From assembly GCF_003597395.2 (NCBI RefSeq), contig NC_133773.1:60253407-60317406 (forward strand): 64,000 nucleotides of DNA, given 5' to 3'. The number at the start of each line of letters is the position of its first letter. The stretch's first letter is position 1. The notes under the pieces were generated by a model that saw only the letters and a program-made list of their open reading frames with translations, ran no database searches and had not been told where the DNA came from. Origin of the DNA: Chelonoidis abingdonii (taxonomy: Eukaryota > Chordata > Testudines > Testudinidae). Positions 1-49,064 of this stretch are shown piece after piece. The position numbers and the translations under genes were made by a program.

Positions 1-790
1 ACTTTTGAATTACATTTCCTGCTTGCCCAGCGTGGAGCTCTGATCAGCACGGCTGGCGATGCAGTTTGAAATCGAAAAAGAGCTCCAGCATAGACCGTAC
101 GGGAGATACTAGGTCTGATCGCTGTATGGGGAGACAAATCTGTTGTATCCAGCTCCGTTACAGAACACGAAATGCCAAAGCGTTTGAATAAAAAACTCCA
201 GGATACACAGCGCTGTGTGACAAGCGTAACGGGAAGCCAGAGACTCAAATGGACGCTCATGAAGGGAGGGAGGGGGTACTGAGGACTCCAGCTATCCCAC
301 AGTCCACAGCAGTCTCTGAAAATTATTTGCATTCTTGGCTGAGCTCCCAATGTCTGTAGGTTCAAACACAGTGTCTGGCGTGGTTCAGGGAACAGCTCCT
401 CAGTTTATTTCCCCCCACCACCACGTGAAAAAAAAAAGGGAAAGATTGCTGTGCTATGGCGTTTGCTCAATGCACTCCGCGAAAAAGGCGCCAAAGGGTT
501 GTCTGCTGCCTTCACAAAGGGAGGGGTGAGGCTGTACCCAGCACCACCCGGGGCAGTGTTTTCTGCCCCATCAGGCACTGTGCTCTCAACACGGAAGTGG
601 GAACTATGGGATAGCTGAGGAACAGCTACCCACAGTGCACCGCTCCTGAAATCGATGGTAGCTTTGGACCATGGACGCAAACAATCGATTTTGGGATCCC
701 ACTGTGGACGCGCTAAACCGATTTTATTAGATCTGTTTTGTAATATCGGTTTAAGCTAATTCGAAATAATCGTGCAGTGTAGACGTACCC
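1..790 (-). mobile_element. PIF/Harbinger-like DNA element, cut by the window edge
   Basis: The right end carries the terminal motif GTGTAGACGTACCC, the inverse of GGGTATGTCTGCAC that opens the related element at 2981. Read on the minus strand, 790 to about 430 aligns with 2981-3360: both hold an ATCGATTT/GTCGATTT segment, a GCACTGTGGGTAGCT block, a TATCCCATA block and a cognate of TGGGGCAGAAAACACTG. No transposase frame is visible in the part shown, so it is likely non-autonomous. The assignment to PIF/Harbinger is inference from the terminal motif shared with 3-bp-TSD MITEs in this window. It abuts the DIRS fragment at 791. Confidence 0.6.
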
Positions 791-1677
791 TCAGAGACCC
801 TACTGGCTGAACTGATCACCAGCAGAAAGTCGACTTTCCAGGAGAGGTGAAGTGAACACAATGCTAATGGCTCAAATTGGGGTGGGGTGGGGGACATGAG
901 CCTTGACAGGACCAGGTTTAAGTCCCACGTTGGGGTCAGTTCCCAAACCTGAGGATAAAGCCTTTCCACCCCTTTAAGAAACTGGACCATCATCTCGTGG
1001 GAGAACACTGACCTGCTATTCACTGAAGGGTGGAAAGTTGAGATGGCTGCCAGATAAACTTTAGTAGATGAGAGAGCCAGACCTTGCTGCTTTAGGTGGA
1101 GTAGATACTCCAAAGTAGAGCGCACAGAAGACCGAGATGGGGAGAGGTTCCATTCAGAGGCCAAACAAGTGACACGTTTCCACTTAGCCAAGTAGGTAGC
1201 CCTGGTGGAAGGCTGTCTACTACTTAGCAAGACTTGTCTAACCTGATCAAGCATGCCTGTTCCTCAGAGTTTAGCCACACAGCATCCATGCCATCAGGTG
1301 TGAGGAGGCAAGTTTTGGGTGGAGTGACCAGTTGTGGTCTTGTGAAATCAAGCCCGGGAAGAGTGGGAGCATGAGTGAAGCTGCCACCAAAAGGTCTAGA
1401 CTCTAGAAGCACGACAAACCAATACTTACATGGCTACTCCAATGCTATCCAGATGATCCTTGCCTTGTCCCATTAAATTTTTATGAGAACCTTGTGAACC
1501 AAGGAAATCGGAGGAAAGGCATACAGTAGATGGTCTGCTCACGAGAGCAGGAAGGCATCGGAGAGGGAGCCCATGCTGTGCCCTCACAGTGAACAGAACT
1601 GAAGGCACTTCCTGTTCTGCCTGGCGGTGAACAGGTCCACCTGGGGAGGCCCCTACCTCTGGAAGATGACTCTGATG
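791..1677 (-). pseudogene. Older DIRS tyrosine-recombinase fragment (5' part of the split copy)
   Basis: The minus strand aligns collinearly with 44339-45225 of the full DIRS element over almost exactly the same length (about 887 bp). Shared peptide motifs include LLSSR-PSTR-TYLAKWKR, STLEYLLHLKQQGLA, AAISTFHP and the catalytic-Arg box SASRVSE (ISARRVSE in the full copy); further along, HLPEVG and LEQEVP/AEQEVP align with the overlapping frame. The alignment stops just past the Arg box, where the Harbinger-like element begins, so the HxxR and Tyr part of the recombinase is absent from the window. Frames are broken by several shifts. It is visibly more diverged than the copy at 43405, hence older or from another subfamily. 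Confidence 0.75.
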
Positions 1678-2980: not shown

Positions 2981-3385
2981 GGGTATGTCTGCACTATGGG
3001 ATTATTCCGATTTTACATAAACCGGTTTTGTAAAACAGATTGTATAAAGTAGAGTGCACGCGGCCACACTAAGCACATTAATTCGGTGGTGTGCGTCCAT
3101 GTACCAAGACTAGCGTCGATTTCTGGAACCTTGCACTGTGGGTAGCTATCCCGTAGCTATCCCATAATTCCCGCAGTCTTCCCTGCCCATTGGAATTCTG
3201 GGTTGAGATCTCAATGCATGATGGTGCAAAAACAGTGTCACGGGTGATTCTGGGTAAATGTCGTCACTCATTCCTTCCTCCGTGAAAGCAACGGCAGACA
3301 ATCATTTCTCGCCCTTTTTTCCCTGGATTGCCCTGGCAGATGCCATAACATGGCAACCATGGAGCCCGTTTTGCCTCAACCCAAG
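2981..3385 (+). mobile_element. 5' part of a PIF/Harbinger-like element
   Basis: It opens with GGGTATGTCTGCAC after a TGA trinucleotide and shares its blocks in order with the inverted copy at 1-790 (GCGTCGATTTCTGG, GCACTGTGGGTAGCTATCCC, ATCCCATAATTCCC). Similarity ends around 3375-3410, where hAT transposase-related sequence starts. No matching right terminus is found, so this is a 5' remnant or a recombinant. Confidence 0.55.
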
Positions 3386-4215
3386 GTTTCCAAACTTGCT
3401 ACAGCACTCAACCTGAAGTGCTGTCCAAAATCTGAGAGAGATGAGGTGTGAAGCATGCTTTCAGAAGTCTTAAAAAAGCAACACTCAGATGCAGAAACAA
3501 CAGAATGCGAAACACCAAAAAAGAAAAAAATCAACCTTCTGATGGTGGCATCTGACTCATGATGATGATGATGAAAGTAAAGATGCGTCGGTCCTCTCTG
3601 CTTTGTATTGTTATCGAGCAGAATTGGTCATCAGCGTGGATGCATATCCTCTGGAATGGTGTGGAAGCATGAAGGGACATATGAATCTTTAGTGCATCTG
3701 GCATGTAAATATCTTGCAACACTGGCTACAACAATGCCACACAAATGCCTGTTCTGACTTTCAGGTGACATTGTAAACAAGAAGTGGATAGCATTATCTC
3801 CTGCAAACGTAACCAAACTTGTCTCTCTGAGTGATTGGCTGAAGTAGGACTGAGTGGACTTGTAGGCTCTAAAGTTTTACATTGTTTTATTTTTGAATGC
3901 AATTATTTTTTGTATATAATTCTACATTTGTAAAGTCAACTTTCATGATAAAGAGATTGCACTACAGTATTTGTAATGGGGGAACTGAAAATACTATTTC
4001 TTTTGGTTTTTTTTACAGTGTAATAAATAAATCTAAAGTGAGCACTGTACACTTTCTATTCTGTGTTGTAACTGAAATCAATATATTTGAAAATGTAGAA
4101 AACATCCAAAATATTTAAATAAATGGTATTCTATTGTTTGTGTGATTAATCATGATTAATCTTTTCAATCCTGCAATTAATTGTGATTAATTTTTTTAAT
4201 TGCTTGACAGCCCTA
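3386..4215 (+). mobile_element. 3' half of a hAT transposon
   Basis: The segment contains decayed hAT transposase coding sequence followed by an A/T-rich 3' untranslated part and a terminal motif GCTTGACAGCCCTAA at about 4201-4215. The repeated GATTAATC-like motifs at 4141-4200 are typical of subterminal DNA in this element type. No matching 5' terminus (TTAGGGCTGTCAAGC) is present upstream; the left side is joined to the Harbinger-like 5' end. Confidence 0.65.
3545..3847 (+). pseudogene. hAT transposase C-terminal fragment (dimerisation domain)
   Basis: From 3713 one frame reads through to a TAG at 3845-3847 with a single internal TGA at 3755-3757. It encodes LATTMPHKCLF, then LSGDIVNKK, LSPANVTKLVSLSDWL, the layout of the hAT C-terminal dimerisation domain (A-T-x-x-P...LF, GDIV, LSP.NV..L..L..WL). 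Upstream, in shifted frames, lie VLSALYCYRAE and PLEW, also expected ahead of that domain. The stop and the frame breaks show it is dead. Domain assignment is from known hAT/ZBED transposases; the exact family is not determined. Confidence 0.75.
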
Positions 4216-4239
4216 ATTTATTTATATCCATTTATTGAC

Positions 4240-5337
4240 TACAGCTGGGCAGAAACTGGATTTTCCCATTTCTTAGGAAATTCATGAGTTAAAAAAAATT
4301 TCCATTCCCGAATGCAACAAAACCGAAAATTTCCACATTTCCTACAAAGCAAAATTCTTAAAGCTAGTTTCAGGTTAATCAAAATATTTAGTTCTGATAT
4401 TTTTTTATATATATAACATGAAATAAATTTTGAAACAAAATTTTTTGAAATCATCTTTTTTGTATGGCTAATGTAAATGTAGAGCAACAACTCTAATTTT
4501 ACATTCAGATGGCTAAGCCTGGAGTAGCTGAGCGTATCGCTGTAGATGCCTCCATTGTATTTGTGAATTGGGCATTGAGTTGTTTCATGTTCTATAGTCT
4601 GTTCTGGATGACCAGAGTCACACACTGGAGAGTCTTTAATTTTCCATTTGCGCAGCAACCATCTGCATCTGCCATAGTTTGTGCAGATGCAGTTTAGGGT
4701 TGCCCATGAGCCTTGTGGGAGACTGAAGCCAGGGATCTTCTATGTCAGGTCTTTTATGGGGTATTTATTTGTAACTTCTTGTAAACTCCATTTGGCTTTC
4801 CAAGTTTCATCAGGGTTGAAATTGTATTGTTGAAGGTTAAATGTGTGGGTCCAAAAGGGCTTATGTGACTTCAAGCCGTGGTGAGGGAAGGTTATTAAGG
4901 TCCTAGTGAATGGGAAGATGTTCATTTTCCACAATCCTCTGATATTTCCAAATAATTGTGGCATCATGGGAAACGGATGGGGGAATGATGTGCAACAGCA
5001 CTGGCAGCCAAGGTATTGGGGCTGACTTGAGGCGTCCAGTGATGTACCATATTGCAGTGTTCAGTTGGACATTAACAAATCAAGTATGGCTACTTCTGGT
5101 CAATACTGGTGCAGAGTATTCCACTATGGAATATGTTTGAAAATGTAATGTAACGAAAAATCAAAACATTACTTTCCAAAAATGTCACACCAATATGTTT
5201 CATTATTGACACACTTTGTGTCTTTTCTTCCAAAATGAAAATTTGTCAAAATCAATATGCTTCCACACAACAATTAGATTTCAACAAAATCAGTTTCCAA
5301 TGGAAACATGTTTCATCAGAAAATATCTGACCAGTTC
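4240..5337. mobile_element. hAT-like element carrying a LINE fragment
   Basis: The ends AGCTGGGCAGAAA (4243) and TCTGACCAGTTCAG (5324-5337) form an imperfect inverted repeat, and both flanks are A/T-rich with AAAATTTTT-type runs, as in non-autonomous hAT elements. The interior 4490-5115 is a LINE ORF2 tail on the minus strand. No clear 8-bp target duplication was found, so the limits are approximate. Confidence 0.45.
4490..5115 (-). pseudogene. Non-LTR retrotransposon ORF2 C-terminal fragment
   Basis: On the minus strand, 4967 to about 4500 is one frame with a single TAG at 4740-4742. It encodes PGFSLPQGSWATLN, then RCRWLLRKWKIKDSP, CDSGHPEQTIEH and TTQCP, ending HLNVKL. This matches the usual tail of LINE ORF2 proteins: a PGFxLPR-x-W-xxLNR-x-R segment followed by a C-x-C-G...QT-x-H-x-x-x-x-CP zinc-binding motif and a closing LDIQL-like end. 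Upstream, 4968-5110 encodes a block like NVQLNTAIWYITG..K..PIPWLPVL..I.PP, also standard for the post-RT region. The family (Jockey/CR1-like or other) is not resolved. It is truncated 5' and has no visible poly-A tail. Confidence 0.65.
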
Positions 5338-12398: not shown

Positions 12399-12870
12399 CA
12401 GGGCCGGCGCTACCATTTAGGCGACCTAGGCAATGGCCTAGGGCACCAGAATTTTGGGGGGGCGCTATTTTACCGGGGGGGGGCGGCACGCGGGTCTGGG
12501 GGACCTACCACAGTCATTTCGGCGGATGGCCCGCTGCTGGAAAGGCTCTGGTGGAGCTGCCGCAGTCATTTCGGCGGACGGTGCGCTGATCTAAAGGCTC
12601 CGGCGGACCTACCGCAGTCATGCCTGCGGCAGGTCCACCGGAACCTTTAGACCAGCAGACCGCCCGCCGGCACGACTGCGGCAGCTTCACCGGAGCCTTT
12701 CCAGCAGCGGACCGCCCACCGAAATGACTGCGGTAGGTCCCCCAGACCCGCGTGCCGCCCCCCCGGTAAAATAGCGCCCCCCCAAAATTCTGGTGCCCTA
12801 GGTCATTGCGTGACGTCCTAGGCGAAATGGCCGTCCGCCTAGGGCGTCAGATACCCTGGCGCCGCTCCTG
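12399..12870. mobile_element. Fold-back hAT element, nearly self-complementary along its length
   Basis: Seen: perfect 8-bp target duplication GGTATACT at 12391-12398 and 12871-12878; termini CAGGGCCGGCGC and GCGCCGCTCCTG. The left arm (about 12399-12625) and right arm (about 12645-12870) are long inverted repeats: for example GCGCTATTTTACCGGGGGG against CCCCCCGGTAAAATAGCGC, and CCACAGTCATTTCGGCGG against CCACCGAAATGACTGCGG. It is CpG- and GC-rich in an AT-rich setting. No coding capacity. The 8-bp duplication and the CAG/CTG ends place it with hAT MITEs. Confidence 0.88.
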
Positions 12871-43404: not shown

Positions 43405-43637
43405 AAAAGATGGTTACTCACCTTTGTAACTGTTGTTCTTCAAGATGTGTTGCTCATATCCATTCCAGTTAGGTGTGTGCGCGCCGCATGCACGTTCGTC
43501 GGAGAAACTTTTACCCTAGCAACACTCGGCGGGTTGGCTGGGCACCCCCTGGAGTGGCACCGCCATGGCGCCGCATATATATCCCAGCCGACCCGGCCAT
43601 CCTTCAGTTCCTTCTTGCCGGCTACTCCGACAGTGGA
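43405..43637 (-). repeat. Right (3') inverted terminal repeat of the DIRS element
   Basis: Inverted match to the left repeat, with an extra outer extension of roughly 27-30 bp (43405-43435, GGTTACTCACCTTTGTAACT) not present at the left end. Such an asymmetric right extension is also described for Dictyostelium DIRS-1. Confidence 0.9.
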
Positions 43638-43653
43638 GAAGGAGGGTGGGTGT

Positions 43654-43754
43654 GGAATGGATATGAGCAACACATCTCGAAGAACAACAGTTACAAAGGT
43701 GAGTAACCGTCTTTTCTTCTTCGAGTGATTGCTCATATTCATTCCAGTAAGGTG
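43654..43754. repeat. Internal complementary region (ICR) of the DIRS element
   Basis: 43654-43714 is the inverse of the right terminus (GAACAACAGTTACAAAGGTG, GAGTAACC) and 43712-43754 is like the left terminus in element sense (TTTCTTCTTCGAGTGATTG, CATTCCAGTAAGGTG). The two meet at TTT (43712-43714), exactly as the ends would in a closed circle. Known role: template for joining the ends during formation of the circular intermediate. Confidence 0.9.
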
Positions 43755-43769
43755 ATTCCCAAGCCTTAC

Positions 43770-44940
43770 CTAGGCGGAGGGGTCGGAGTGAGATGTGGCA
43801 GTATGGAGCACCGCTGCACCAAAGGCTGCATCATCTCTAGATTGCTGGACCAACGCATAGTGCGAGGCGAAGGTGTGGACTGATGACCAGGTCGCAGCAC
43901 AGCATATCTCTTGGATGGGCACGTGCGCCAGGAAGGCGGCTGAGGAAGCTTGAGCTCTAATAGAATGCGCCGTGAGGCATCCCAAGGGAAATGAGCCAGG
44001 TCATAGCACGTGCGAATGCAGGCTGTCACCCAGGAGGAAATCCTCTGGGAGGAGACTGGCAGACCTTTCATTCGCTCCACAACCGCCACAAACAGCTGAG
44101 GAGACTTTCGGAAGGGCTTCGTTCTCTCAATATAGAAAGCAAGCGCTCTACGCACATCTAAGGTGTGTAGCTGTTGCTCCCGCCGAGAAGAGTGGGGCTT
44201 TGGAAAGAAGACCGGGAGGAAGATGTCCTGGTTGGTATAGAAGGCAGACACTACCTTAGGTAGAAACGCCGGATGAGGTTGCAGCTGCACTTTGTCCTTA
44301 TGGAAGACAGTATAAGGTGGGTCCACCGTGAGGGCTCTGAGCTCAGAGACCCGCCTGGCTGAGATAATGGCCACCAGGAAGACTGTCTTCCATGACAGGT
44401 ACAGGAGTGAGCAAGTCGCAAGTGGCTCAAAGGGCGGTAGCATCAGCCTGCTTAGGACTAAGTTGAGGTGGGGGCAGGGCGACGTGCGGGGGGATAGATG
44501 CGCTCCAGGCCTTTAATGAACCGAGAGACCACTGGGTGAGAGAATACAGAATGACCACCCTCGCCTGGATGGAAAGTGGATATAGCTGCGAGGTGCACCT
44601 TCAGGGAGGATGTCGCCAGGCCCTGCTGCTTAAGGTACCAGAAGTAGTCTAAGACCGTGGGAATCGAGGCCTCTAAGGGAGTAATGCCCTGAGTCGTGCA
44701 CCAGCATGCGAAGCGCTTCCACTTAGCCAAATACGTGGAGCGGGTGGAAGGCTTCCTGCTACTGAGGAGAATATGCTGTACCGGAGCGGAACAGCACAAC
44801 TCCGCAGCATTCAGCCATGCAGGAGCCACGCCGTGAGGTGGAGGGCACGCAGGTCCGGATGGCGAAGCCTGCCGTGGCCCTGTGTGATCAGGTCTGGGAA
44901 GAAAGGGAGGGGAACCGGAGTGGCCACTGACAGATCCAGC
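43770..44940 (-). pseudogene. DIRS tyrosine recombinase, disrupted by two frameshifts
   Basis: The N-terminal core-binding part (LLSSRKPSTRSTYLAKWKR, LDYFWYLKQQGLATS, HLAAISTFHP, RFIKGLERIYP) lies in one frame down to about 44480. A one-base shift moves it to a second frame with LNLVLSRLMLPPFEPLA and ISARRVSELRAL, the catalytic Arg box. Near 43980 a second shift leads to the last frame with TAHSIRA (the H-x-x-R box), TWSSVHTF and SHYAL, whose Tyr is the likely nucleophile, ending at a stop at 43770 just before the ICR. All catalytic residues can thus be found, but not in one frame. Known: in DIRS elements this enzyme integrates the circular copy without target duplication. Confidence 0.88.
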
Positions 44941-46775
44941 AAGGTGGTGTACCAGGGCTGCCTGGACCATGCAGGCGCGATCAGGATCAGATGCGCTTTG
45001 TCCCTGCGGAGCTTCAGCAGGACCTTGTGCACCAGAGGAAACGGAGGGAAGGCATATAGCAGGCGGTGTCCCCAGGGCAGGAGGAACGCATCCGTGATCG
45101 ATCCCGGGGAAAGACCCTAGAAGGAGCAGAACTCCTGGCACTTCCTGTTCGAGCGGGAGGTGAACAGGTCTACGAGAGGAAACCCCCACCTCTGGAAGAT
45201 GGAATGTATGACGTCTGGCCGAATTGACCACTCGTGGCAGAGGAAGGACCGGCTCAGCCGATCCGCCAGGGCGTTCTGGACCCCCGGGAGAAAGGACGCC
45301 ACTAGGTCCACCTGGTGGGCTACACAGAAGTCCCAGAGTCGAATGGCCTCCTGACACAGGGGAGACGAGTGGGTCCCCCCCATCTGTTGATGTAGTACAT
45401 GGCCGTTGTGTTGTCCGTGAACACAGAAACACAACGGCCACAAAGATGCTGCTGGAATGCCTGACAGGCTAGGTGGACAGCTCTCAACTCCCGGACATTT
45501 ATATGGAGCGTGAGCTCCTGGGCTGACCAAAGGCCCTGGGTACGCAGGCGACCTAGATGGGCCACCCAACCAAGGGATGACGCGTCCGTCGTCAAGGTCA
45601 GCGATGGCTGCTGTGGTTGAAATGGTATTCCCGTGCATACCAGGGACAGATTCAGCCACCAGTCGAGGGAGCGGAGGGGGCTCGGAGGAACCGTGACCAG
45701 GATGTCCATACGGTCCCTGCTCGGGCGGAAGACCGAACGGAGCCACGTTTGAAAGGGCAGCATGCGGAGCCTGGCGTACTTGGTGACATAAGTGCATGCG
45801 GCCATATGCCCCAACAGGCCTAGGCAGGTGCGACCCGAGGTGAGTGGGGAGGCCTGCAGGCCCCGGATGATCAAGGCGATCGTTTGGAAGCATGCCTGGG
45901 GCAAGTAAGCCCTGGTGAGCATGGAGTCCAGGGTTGCTCCTATGAAGTCCAGCCTTTGAGAAGGGATCAGTGTGGATTTCTCCATGTTGAGGAGCAGTCC
46001 CAACCGGGAGAAGAGGGCCATGATTACGCTGATGTGCTGATGGACCTGAGTCTGAGAGGTCCCTTTGATGAGCCAGTCGTCGAGATACGGAAACACATGT
46101 ATCTGCTGCCTGCGGAGGTGTGCGGCGACGACTGCCATGCACTTTGTAAACACCCTCGGGGCCGTGGAGAGGCCAAAGGGGAGGACTGCGAACTGGAAGT
46201 GCTGGTGGTTGATCGTAAACCGAAGGTACTTCCTGTATGGTGGAAAGATGGCAATGTGGAAGTACGCGTCCTTCATGTCGAGGGCAGCGTACCAGTCTCC
46301 AGGATCCAAAGACGGGATAATAGTTCCCAGGGAGACCATGCGTAACTTCAACTTGAGCAGCCACTTGTTGAGCCCCCGCAGGTCTAGAATAGGCCGGAGG
46401 CCTCCCTTGGACTTGAGAATTAGAAAATAGTGGGAGTAAAACCCCTTTCCTCTCTCGGCTATCGGGACCTCCTCTACAGCTCCTGCGGCAAGGAGAGACT
46501 GCACCTCTTGCAAGAGGATTTGCTCGTGAGAGGGGTCCCTGAAGACGGACCGGGATGGGGGGCGGGAAGGCGGGGATGAAGCAAATTGGAGGTGGTATCC
46601 TTGCTTCACCGTGCACAGCACCCAAAGGTCTGAGGTAAGCTGGGACCACACCGGGAGGAAGTAAGAAAGGAGGTCGGAGAAGGGGGGAGAAGGATCCTGT
46701 GTTGAGGCTGGTACGTCGTCCCCAGGCGCACCTTCAAAAGTTGGTCTTAGGCCCTGGTGGAGCCTTAGAGGGCCC
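44811..46775 (-). pseudogene. DIRS reverse transcriptase / RNase H (plus downstream domain), disrupted
   Basis: From 46651 a frame of about 425 codons contains RT motifs LRPILDLRGLN, LDMKDAYFHI, LPFGLSTAP and YLDD (residues 189-192, the catalytic aspartates), then RNase H motifs TTDAS (D356), NVRELRAV (E388) and FTDNTTAMYYIN (D413). In-frame sequence continues upstream to about 46775 with no clear ATG. A frameshift in the G-run near 45375 moves the rest (GGTHSSPLCQEAIRLWDF, ALADRLSR, the fourth RNase H region) to another frame, which then meets a TAG at 45117-45119 and continues to a stop at 44811. That last part (DVIHSIFQRWGFPLVDLF, AFPPFPLVHKVLLKLRRD) is where DIRS elements carry a methyltransferase-like domain; calling it so here is inference. 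Its end overlaps the recombinase frame. Confidence 0.88.
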
Positions 46776-48340
46776 TTGGCTCTGCCCCCCTTGGAGGCAG
46801 ATAAGAGCCACTCTTTGAAGGAGGTCCTGATGGGCCCTAAGGTCTATCGGCGGAGGCCCTGAAGAAGAGGTCCCCACCACAGCCTCATCTGGGGAAGAGG
46901 AGGAAGATACCCCGGGAATGAGGGGGTCCTGAATAGCCCCATGCTCCTGGGGTGGTTCCTGCTCCAGCTGGCCTGGGGAGTCAGGGGGATGTGGGACGTG
47001 CTCTTCCGACTTGTCCGCGGGAGGTGGTGGCCTCTGGTGCCCGATGTTCCGAGGCAGCAGAGTGGGCCTGGTCTAGGGGAGCACCCTGGGCTTGATGGTA
47101 CGCCCAGGGTGTCCAAAAGGATCACTGTTGAGGCCTGGCGTCCTGAGGACGTGTGTACTGAAAGACCCCCGTGGGCACCTCCATGTCCCGGTCCTGGTCG
47201 TAGTAGCTGTCTGCCTGCGAGGAGACGGACGTCTGCCTGGACGGCCACAGAGGAGCAGAAAACCCCGGCGCTGAAGTGCCAACTGATCTTGCACCCCGGG
47301 ACCGTGAAGACCGGTGCCGGTACGCAGAGCGGTACCGAGAGCGAGACCGGGACCTGCGACCAGCCCGGTGCCGGGAGGTCGACCGGGATCTCGAGCCCCT
47401 ATGGCGAGATCTGCTCCGGGAGGAACGGTGTCCGTGACGGTGCTGGGAGCTGAAGCTGTACCGTGAGTAGCAGGATGGGGAGCGAGAGACCGAGCGGCGC
47501 CTTGAGATCGACCAGTGCCTAGAGGTTGATGGCACCACGAGCTCGACCGGTGCCGTGGGGAGTGGTGCCGGGACTGGGAGTGGTGCCAGGAGCGGGAGTT
47601 ACGTCTTGATCTGGAGCGCCCCCGGGATCGCGACCTTATGCGGTGCCGGTCCGCCACGCTGACAGACGACGGTCTGGCCAGGGACGGCTTGCCCATGGAT
47701 GGTGGTACCCACACCGGCGGTGCCGGGGGTAAGGGCGGTGCTGGCTCAGTCATGACGATCAAGTCCCTCGCCGCCGAGAACATCTCTGGAGTTGACGGCA
47801 AAGTGAGCTCTACCACGGCGGGTGCCGGGGAGCTGCCAGGCGCCGGACTCAACGGCCCTCGTGGGGCTGGAGTCAACGGTGCCGGTTTAGGCGGTGCTGC
47901 GGCAGGTGTTGGTGCCGGGTGGGCTGACTTGGGCGCTGTGTCTGGCTGCGACGCGGGTGTTGTCGAGCCTGTCTGAGGTTTCGCCGTCTTCGACCTCGGG
48001 GAGAGGGAGCGGCGCGGAGTTGACTTCAGTGCCAGCTGCGGCCAGTGCTGGGAAGCCTTAGGCGTACCGACGGTGCCCGGAACCATAGGGGCAGTCTCGC
48101 TCACCTGCTGGCTCGTCCTCGGTGCCGAAGGTGAGGGTGCTAGTGCCACTTCCATTAGGAGCTGCCTTAACCTAATGTCCCGCTCCTTTTTGGTTCGTGG
48201 CTTAAAAGCCTTGCAAATTGGGCACTTAGAGGACAAGTGCGATTCCCTGAGGCACTTCAGACAGGAGTCGTGGGAATCCCGTCGGCATCGGCCTATGGCA
48301 GGCCGCACATTGCTTGAAGCCCGGTTAGCCAGGCATGAAC
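46734..48340 (-). pseudogene. DIRS gag-like frame with CCHC zinc knuckle and SR-rich region, disrupted
   Basis: The N-terminal part (frame opening at 48308) holds C16-x2-C19-x4-H24-x4-C29, an exact retroviral-type zinc knuckle, then KAFKPRTKKERDIRLRQLLME, a standard DIRS gag block. A Pro/Ala-rich stretch and an Arg/Ser-rich tract (SRSRGRSRSRRNSRS, then further SR repeats in the next frame) suggest a basic nucleic-acid-binding domain. The frame changes near 47540, a TGA interrupts at about 47119-47121, and it changes again near 46995 to end at TGA 46734-46736. A further frame break lies just upstream of the knuckle, and a TAA lies shortly after the likely true ATG near 48340. The last residues overlap the start of the RT frame. 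Role inferred: particle/RNA-binding protein. Confidence 0.75.
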
Positions 48341-48818
48341 TCCGGCACCGGGTGCGGGGCAGGGGTTACCCCCCAAACCCTGCCGATTCACTATATAACT
48401 AACAACTACAACTATAACTATAACTAATCCAACTAACTATATAAGAACAAACAACTAGAACTATGGTTAGAAAACGAGAATAACTTCCATTAGGAGCTGC
48501 CTTAACCTAATGTCTCGCTCCTTTTTGGTCCGTGGCTTAAAAGCCTTGCAAATTGGGCACTTAGAGGACAAGTGCGATTCCCTGAGGCACTTCAGACAGG
48601 AGTCGTGGGAATCCCGTCGGCATCGGCCTATGGCAGGCCGCACATTGCTTGAAGCCCGGTTAGCCAGGCATGAACTCCGGCACCGGGTGCGGGGCAGGGG
48701 TTACCCCCCAAACCCTGCCGATTCACTATATAACTAACAACTACAACTATAACTATAACTAATCCAACTAACTATATAAGAACAAACAACTAGAACTATG
48801 GTTAGAAAAACGAGAATT
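48149..48818. repeat. Tandem direct duplication of 335 bp at the DIRS gag 5' end
   Basis: 48151-48485 and 48486-48818 are nearly identical (offset 335 bp): both contain TCCATTAGGAGCTGCC, AAGCCTTGCAAATTGGGC, GGGCAGGGGTTACCCCCC and an ACTATAACTATAACTAA run. In element direction the upstream copy encodes the knuckle and ends in a TAA shortly after RQLLME, so the duplication adds an extra gag start that leads nowhere. Confidence 0.92.
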
Positions 48819-48870
48819 AGAACTACGAGTAGCTAGGGAAGGTGGAGGTCAGCTAAGCTGCACTTCATTG

Positions 48871-49064
48871 TTCCAACGACCGACACGGGCGGGAAGAAGG
48901 AACTGAGGGGTGGCCGGGTCGGCTGGGGTATATATGCGGCGCCACTCAGGGGGCGCCCAGCCGACCCGCCGAGTGTTGCTAGGGTAAAAGTTTCTCCGAT
49001 GAACGTGCATGCGGCGCGCACACACCTCACTGGAATGGATATGAACAATCACTCAAAGAAGAAA
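48871..49064 (-). repeat. Left (5') inverted terminal repeat of the DIRS element
   Basis: The reverse complement of about 43470-43637 with about 90% identity by eye: shared blocks GTGTGTGCGCGCCGCATGCA, CGGAGAAACTTTTACCCTAG, CAACACTCGGCGGG, CAGCCGACCCGGCCA and CAGTTCCTTCTT. The outermost 38 bp (TTTCTTCTTTGAGTGATTGT in element sense) differ from the other end but match the internal complementary region. A TATATA-like motif (CGCATATATA) lies in the repeat and could serve the promoter. Confidence 0.9.

What the first reader, a model, noticed from the sequence alone, without database searches (positions are those of the whole stretch)
43405..49064. Near-complete DIRS-type tyrosine-recombinase retrotransposon in an intron
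Non-identical inverted ends, ICR, gag with an exact CCHC knuckle, RT with YLDD, RNase H triad and a recombinase with identifiable R, HxxR and Y boxes are all present in order. Such elements are rare compared with LINEs and LTR elements in amniotes. This copy is long enough to define the family's architecture, although it is not active.
Basis: partly seen in the sequence, partly recalled or inferred. Interest (0 to 1): 0.75.

Follow-up and report, generated by a model that had tools for sequence, protein, structure and literature searches.

The report
Damaged DIRS jumping gene, turtle genome
This is a broken copy of a DIRS retrotransposon, a jumping gene that copies itself through RNA and inserts with a recombinase, from a large family in what is very probably a turtle; the kind is already known in turtles, so the find is ordinary.

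Summary
The element at 43405-49064 (minus strand) is real and is a DIRS1-like retrotransposon. The internal complementary region (43653-43757) matches the joined 3' and 5' ends in 97 of 105 positions through one shared TTT. Gag CCHC knuckle, RT (Pfam RVT_1 4e-22), RNase H and recombinase boxes are in order. All 20 other fetched copies carry the missing segment, and none shows the duplication. The family is abundant: 4041 first-look RT candidates, of which 40 were scored, at 86-100%. Its RT groups with turtle proteins, beside Gopherus. DIRS in a tortoise is already in print. Four copies, this one included, share a core of at least 2256 bp with no difference but have divergent ends, in an assembly that also shows blocks of dense short indels in this family. 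I read the shared core, and perhaps the duplication and deletion, as assembly artefacts. The intron claim is not settled. Most novel lead: the DIRS MT domain may be related to the cap methylase PCIF1, with an altered catalytic motif.

The parts
43405..49064 (-). Whole DIRS1-like element copy (5660 bp), with TTT at both ends
   Evidence: Ends compared with fetched copies at other places
48890..49064 (-). Left (5') inverted terminal repeat
   Evidence: Inverted repeats I1, I3, I4
43405..43620 (-). Right (3') inverted terminal repeat with outer extension
   Evidence: Inverted repeats I1, I2, I3
43653..43757 (-). Internal complementary region: complement of 3' end joined to 5' end through one TTT
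   Evidence: 97 of 105 positions match, no gap; 86 of 91
47073..48365 (-). gag-like ORF (430 aa) with CCHC knuckle at 48225-48266; an Arg/Ser-rich ORF overlaps it in another frame
   Evidence: ORF list, motif position, Pfam RSRP weak (0.0084, under cut-off) for 47122-47598
48483..48817 (-). First unit (5' side) of a 335-bp tandem duplication, carrying a second copy of the CCHC stretch
   Evidence: 99% identity; not seen in any of 20 fetched copies
48148..48482 (-). Second unit of the duplication
46798..46802 (-). Point where this copy lacks about 850 bp that all 20 fetched copies have, between gag and RT
   Evidence: BLAST joins in 20 of 20 copies, 810-907 bp apart
45323..46843 (-). Reverse transcriptase ORF (507 aa) with FPYLDD, and part of RNase H
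   Evidence: RVT_1 4e-22; RT_RNaseH 3.4e-4, under its cut-off; best PDB match Ty3 RT 4ol8, 1.5e-10
44811..45240 (-). Methyltransferase (MT) region (VDLFTS at 45176, YAFPPF at 45059), with an in-frame stop between them and in another frame than the RT; outer limits approximate
   Evidence: no Pfam match in this copy's own pieces; family evidence from homologues
44461..45468 (-). Recombinase (YR) ORF, N-terminal part, overlapping MT; SAM-like domain at 44572-44760
   Evidence: Phage_int_SAM_4 E 0.0012, under its cut-off; 7 of 9 homologues are named turtle proteins
43770..44512 (-). Recombinase catalytic part: SARRVSEL (44365) in one frame, AHSIRA (43973) and SHYALV (43868) in another
   Evidence: alignment with turtle proteins P0121 and P0126

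Best explanation
It is an inactive copy of a DIRS1-like tyrosine-recombinase retrotransposon, from a large family in what is very probably a turtle. Proposed working of an intact element, following the published DIRS1 model: (1) it is transcribed from the left ITR; (2) RT/RNase H copies the RNA; (3) the ICR, which is the complement of the 3' end joined to the 5' end with one shared trinucleotide, acts as the splint that completes and joins the ends into a circle; (4) the recombinase inserts the circle at an NTT site without duplicating the target. Shown here: the ICR/terminus match, NTT next to the 5' end, no target duplication, independent sites, domain order. Inferred: transcription, circle formation, integration. 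As assembled, this copy cannot code for a whole RNase H/MT or recombinase. Its 335-bp duplication, ~850-bp deletion and the core shared letter for letter with three other loci are most likely partly or wholly products of the assembly.
For: Repeats and ICR. In 16 of the 21 copies held (window copy included; L016, L024, L025, L026, L028 left out for lost or uncertain ends), the circle junction aligns to the copy's own ICR over all 91 nt in 15 and over 79 in one. The triplet before the 5' end is NTT in 13 of 16 (exceptions L011 GCA, L023 GCT, and L018, whose damaged end I placed by hand). Direct repeats between the two flanks are 0-3 bases in 16 of 16, and 0 of 120 pairs of copies share a 20-mer within 200 bp of flank on either side. 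RVT_1 4e-22. MT profile in 94 of 98 listed RT homologues of 600 aa or more, 77 of 81 without the profile's own members. RT tree: the 12 turtle rows lie together with one unnamed row (96/91), window copy beside Gopherus (96/91). Artefact reading: no substitution and no gap over window-element positions 3030-5285 in all six pairs of the window copy, L009, L010 and L011, while the gag parts of the three differ from this copy's by 7-9%. Blocks of dense short indels start and stop sharply in other copies (per 300 bp: L015 17-35, L021 11-30, L023 6-19 and 21-31).
Against: Pfam has no match to the recombinase catalytic domain in the window copy or in 5 ORFs of other copies (one unrelated weak row, UPF0253, 0.033), and only weak SAM-like matches in 8 homologues. 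The YR identity rests on these, on motifs and on homologues. The YR model was poor (mean pLDDT 49.6) and was not searched. The window copy itself has no dense-indel block, so the artefact reading is indirect. Host as turtle rests on relatives of the element; no host gene was used to name the species.
Confidence: 0.93

Rival explanations
1. The mosaic pattern is biological: new copies arise by frequent template switching during reverse transcription between co-packaged family RNAs (or copies exchange tracts by gene conversion), so one core sits between different ends.
For: In 16 copies (427 sites), neighbouring sites are less incompatible than in any of 500 permutations (0.382 against a mean of 0.403, minimum 0.387), also without the four core-sharing copies (0.413 against 0.432, minimum 0.415). 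Mean r2 falls from 0.199 under 10 bp to 0.067 over 3.2 kb, about the 1/(n-1) expected of unlinked sites for 16 rows. Shared perfect tracts have different ends in different pairs, and L012, L013, L014 share another tract in the 5' half. No two of the 16 copies share flanks.
Against: No difference at four loci on three large contigs over 2256 bp sits oddly beside 7-9% differences in the same copies. Blocks of dense short indels show that this family is not cleanly assembled. The nearest scored relative of the window copy's gag part is only 94% (40 of 2630 candidates scored), so no donor was seen. Copies were chosen by likeness to the window core.
Confidence: 0.25
2. A Ngaro or PAT element (other tyrosine-recombinase retrotransposons).
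For: They share RT, RNase H and a recombinase (recalled).
Against: Termini are inverted and paired with an ICR, not split direct repeats (recalled as the mark of Ngaro and PAT); an MT region is present; the recombinase has the same orientation as the RT.
Confidence: 0.02
3. A Ty3/Gypsy LTR element.
For: Best solved relative of the RT is Ty3 (4ol8, 1.5e-10), as expected since DIRS RT/RH is described as close to Ty3/Gypsy (PMC3266345, passage).
Against: No direct terminal repeats and no integrase domain in the 7 ORFs scanned.
Confidence: 0.01

Closest known systems
DIRS1-like elements of sauropsids: AcDIRS1/AcDIRS2 of Anolis (PMC3266345, Table 3, section read), Gopherus agassizii (same paper, Table 1, passage), DIRS-5_CBP named as sauropsid in the Xenopus paper PMC9210276 (passage; that the code means painted turtle is recalled)
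   Same: Size about 6 kb in the undeleted copies, ITR plus right extension, two ICRs overlapping on 3 bp, NTT-type ends (AcDIRS2 TTT...TGT, junction AAA; here TTT...TTT, junction AAA), RT-RH-MT with overlapping YR, HSTR box in other copies, YLDD
   Different: This copy is 5660 bp with a duplication and a deletion. No DNA comparison with the Repbase entries was possible, so it may be one of them.
Turtle proteins in public databases (Gopherus flavomarginatus P0006/P0121/P0126, Chelydra P0003/P0004, Macrochelys P0002)
   Same: RT 61-69% identical for P0002, P0003, P0004, P0006; YR 60-61% for P0121, P0126; same motifs
   Different: Other families or species. P0126 keeps SARRVSEL, HSTR and Y in one frame.
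PCIF1/CAPAM and phage-type Dam methyltransferases (possible relatives of the MT domain)
   Different: Where PCIF1 has NPPF (seen in the host's own PCIF1 exon), DIRS MTs have F-P-P in 83 of 94

Membership tests
DIRS1-like superfamily | Inverted terminal repeats with divergent outer parts | tested here: met
DIRS1-like superfamily | ICRs near the 3' end complementary to both termini, overlapping on a 3-bp circular junction | tested here: met
   97 of 105 and 86 of 91 in this copy; full 91 nt aligned in 15 of 16 copies (a fixed TTT was used as the shared triplet)
DIRS1-like superfamily | NTT-type ends and no target site duplication | tested here: met
   NTT before the 5' end in 13 of 16; direct repeats between flanks 0-3 bases in 16 of 16; no orthologous empty site was available
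DIRS1-like superfamily | gag, RT-RNase H-MT and overlapping YR in one orientation | tested here: met
   Order and positions; MT recognised by motifs in this copy, which has a stop in it
DIRS1-like superfamily | Tyrosine recombinase with R, HxxR and Y | tested here: met
   Motifs in order but in two frames; continuous in turtle homologue P0126; no Pfam match to the catalytic domain
DIRS1-like superfamily | RT groups with other vertebrate DIRS elements | tested here: inconclusive
   Groups with turtle, then newt proteins (21 of the 23 listed rows that name an organism and 11 unnamed ones were given); most long RT homologues carry the MT; no named DIRS, Ngaro, PAT or Gypsy reference was in the tree
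Ngaro / PAT | Split direct repeats | tested here: not met
   Ends are inverted; the direct repeats of 20 nt or more are the 335-bp duplication and short ones, one of which (26 nt) pairs the 3' ITR with the ICR
Ty3/Gypsy | Long terminal direct repeats and integrase | tested here: not met
PCIF1/CAPAM-like methyltransferase (for the MT domain) | Catalytic motif NPPF | tested here: not met
   FPP in 83 of 94 MT regions, YPP in 4, other or none in 7 (the first PP in the span was taken, so a few may be other positions)
PCIF1/CAPAM-like methyltransferase (for the MT domain) | Same fold and profile-level similarity | tested here: inconclusive

The most novel reading that the evidence does not exclude
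The MT domain that DIRS retrotransposons carry, of unknown function in the papers seen, is a sister of the cap-specific adenosine methylase PCIF1 rather than a plain DNA adenine methylase. It acts on, or merely binds, the capped 5' end of the element's own RNA. Its catalytic motif has lost the polar residue (FPP in place of NPP), so it may be a binder or use an altered chemistry.
Probability: 0.22. Interest if true: 0.55.

Novelty: new member of a known kind. Interest (0 to 1): 0.28.

Why it matters
As an element it adds a copy of a known kind in a known kind of host. It is useful as a caution: in this assembly, copies of one repeat family hold blocks of dense short indels and cores that agree to the letter, so structure, age and recombination read from a single copy are unsafe. 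The MT lead would matter more: the two DIRS papers seen in passages here call the domain's function unknown, and a link to PCIF1 would make it testable.

Full report
What was claimed and what is there. On the minus strand the named features are present and in order. The outer coordinates hold: other copies begin at the same base, mostly after an NTT triplet, and end with TTT (11 of 15), TAT (3) or TTA (1). The inverted ends are far beyond chance: longest exact inverted match 36 nt, against at most 11 in 100 Markov shuffles.

Ends and ICR. The region 43653-43757 is the reverse complement of the 3' end joined to the 5' end through one shared TTT: 97 of 105 positions match, without gaps. Of the 21 copies held (window copy plus 20 fetched), 16 had both ends recognisable and were kept; L016, L024, L025, L026 and L028 were left out. 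In 15 of these 16 the junction aligns to the copy's own ICR over all 91 nt, in one over 79 nt. NTT lies before the 5' end in 13 of 16. Direct repeats between the two flanks are 0-3 bases in 16 of 16, and 0 of 120 pairs share a 20-mer within 200 bp of flank on either side, so these are separate insertions without target duplication. This is the structure by which Piednoel and others 2011 define DIRS1-like elements (PMC3266345; section 10 read, passages).

Coding parts. Gag has an exact CX2CX4HX4C knuckle. RT is Pfam RVT_1 with E 4e-22; RNase H scores 3.4e-4, under its cut-off. The recombinase N-terminal part overlaps MT in another frame, as in about half of the elements annotated in that paper. 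Its R box and its HSIR/Y boxes are in different frames in this copy, and RNase H/MT is also broken. Among 16 copies, neighbouring landmarks are in one frame without a stop in 2 of 16 (RNase H to MT) to 12 of 16, so the breaks differ between copies, except that the four core-sharing copies share theirs. In a Gopherus protein (P0126) SARRVSEL, HSTR and Y stand in one frame.

Family and host. The host assembly has 2.26 Gb in 3849 contigs. An RT query gave 4041 first-look candidates, of which 40 were scored, at 86-100% (window copy included). A 33-base terminal/ICR motif occurs 3234 times exactly, its reversed control never; a copy can hold it twice, so this is not a copy count. 1114 proteins of 7991 scored match the RT at E up to 0.001 and the best 120 were listed; named ones near the top are turtles, then a newt and fish. 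A tree of 33 rows was made from the window copy, 21 of the 23 listed rows that name an organism (two Chrysemys rows without the RVT_1 label left out) and 11 of the unnamed ones. The 12 turtle rows lie together with one unnamed row (96/91), the window copy pairs with Gopherus flavomarginatus (96/91), and newts are the next named relatives, four unnamed rows being nearer (midpoint root). Of the 120 listed, 98 are 600 aa or longer and 94 of those carry the MT domain; without the profile's own members 77 of 81.

A warning about this copy. All 20 fetched copies have about 810-907 bp at the point where this copy jumps from 46802 to 46798, and none shows the 335-bp duplication. This copy, L009, L010 and L011, at four places on three large contigs, have no substitution and no gap between them over element positions 3030-5285 in any of six pairs. 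The longest difference-free runs are 2256-3273 bp, counting substitutions in aligned columns. The gag parts of the three differ from this copy's by 7-9%. L012, L013 and L014 share another difference-free run of 1499-1710 bp in the 5' half. The closest scored relative of this copy's gag part is 94%. In the same set L015, L021 and L023 have stretches with 6-35 short indels per 300 bp that begin and end abruptly next to stretches with few or none; this looks like uncorrected long-read sequence patched in (inference). I therefore read the perfect tracts as repeat collapse or filling by the assembler, and hold the duplication and deletion of this copy in doubt. Real recombination in the family is not excluded: LD decays to the unlinked level, and neighbour incompatibility is below all 500 permutations, with and without the four copies, but both could come from the assembly. 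The copies were found by likeness to this copy's core, which favours core sharing.

Verdict. A DIRS1-like element, firmly; a new copy of a known kind in a host group where DIRS is known; damaged and perhaps distorted by assembly. The 'rare in amniotes' argument for high interest does not hold for this genome.

Noticed in passing
window 790-1677 (-): A second, older DIRS fragment with MT and recombinase parts (protein matches 39% and 64%, best E 1.3e-41).
   Followed up: partly
L015, L021, L023 (also parts of L013, L017, L018, L020, L027): Blocks with very many short indels next to clean stretches inside repeat copies, as if raw long reads had been patched into the assembly.
   Followed up: partly
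L012, L013, L014: Another difference-free shared tract, 1499-1710 bp in the gag half, at three separate sites.
   Followed up: partly
L013:2538-3104 (-), window 44811-45240: MT domain model closest to PCIF1/CAPAM in the second look, with FPP in place of NPP.
   Followed up: partly
P0005 and P0090 (database proteins): DIRS RT proteins filed as host genes (RAD51 homolog 2 isoform in Pelodiscus, KIF6 isoform in Misgurnus): chimeric or mistaken annotation.
   Followed up: no
window 12495-12740: Two adjacent GC-rich arrays of 52-bp units, 81% and 78% matches.
   Followed up: no
[quoted passage not shown] not tested (seen).
   Followed up: no
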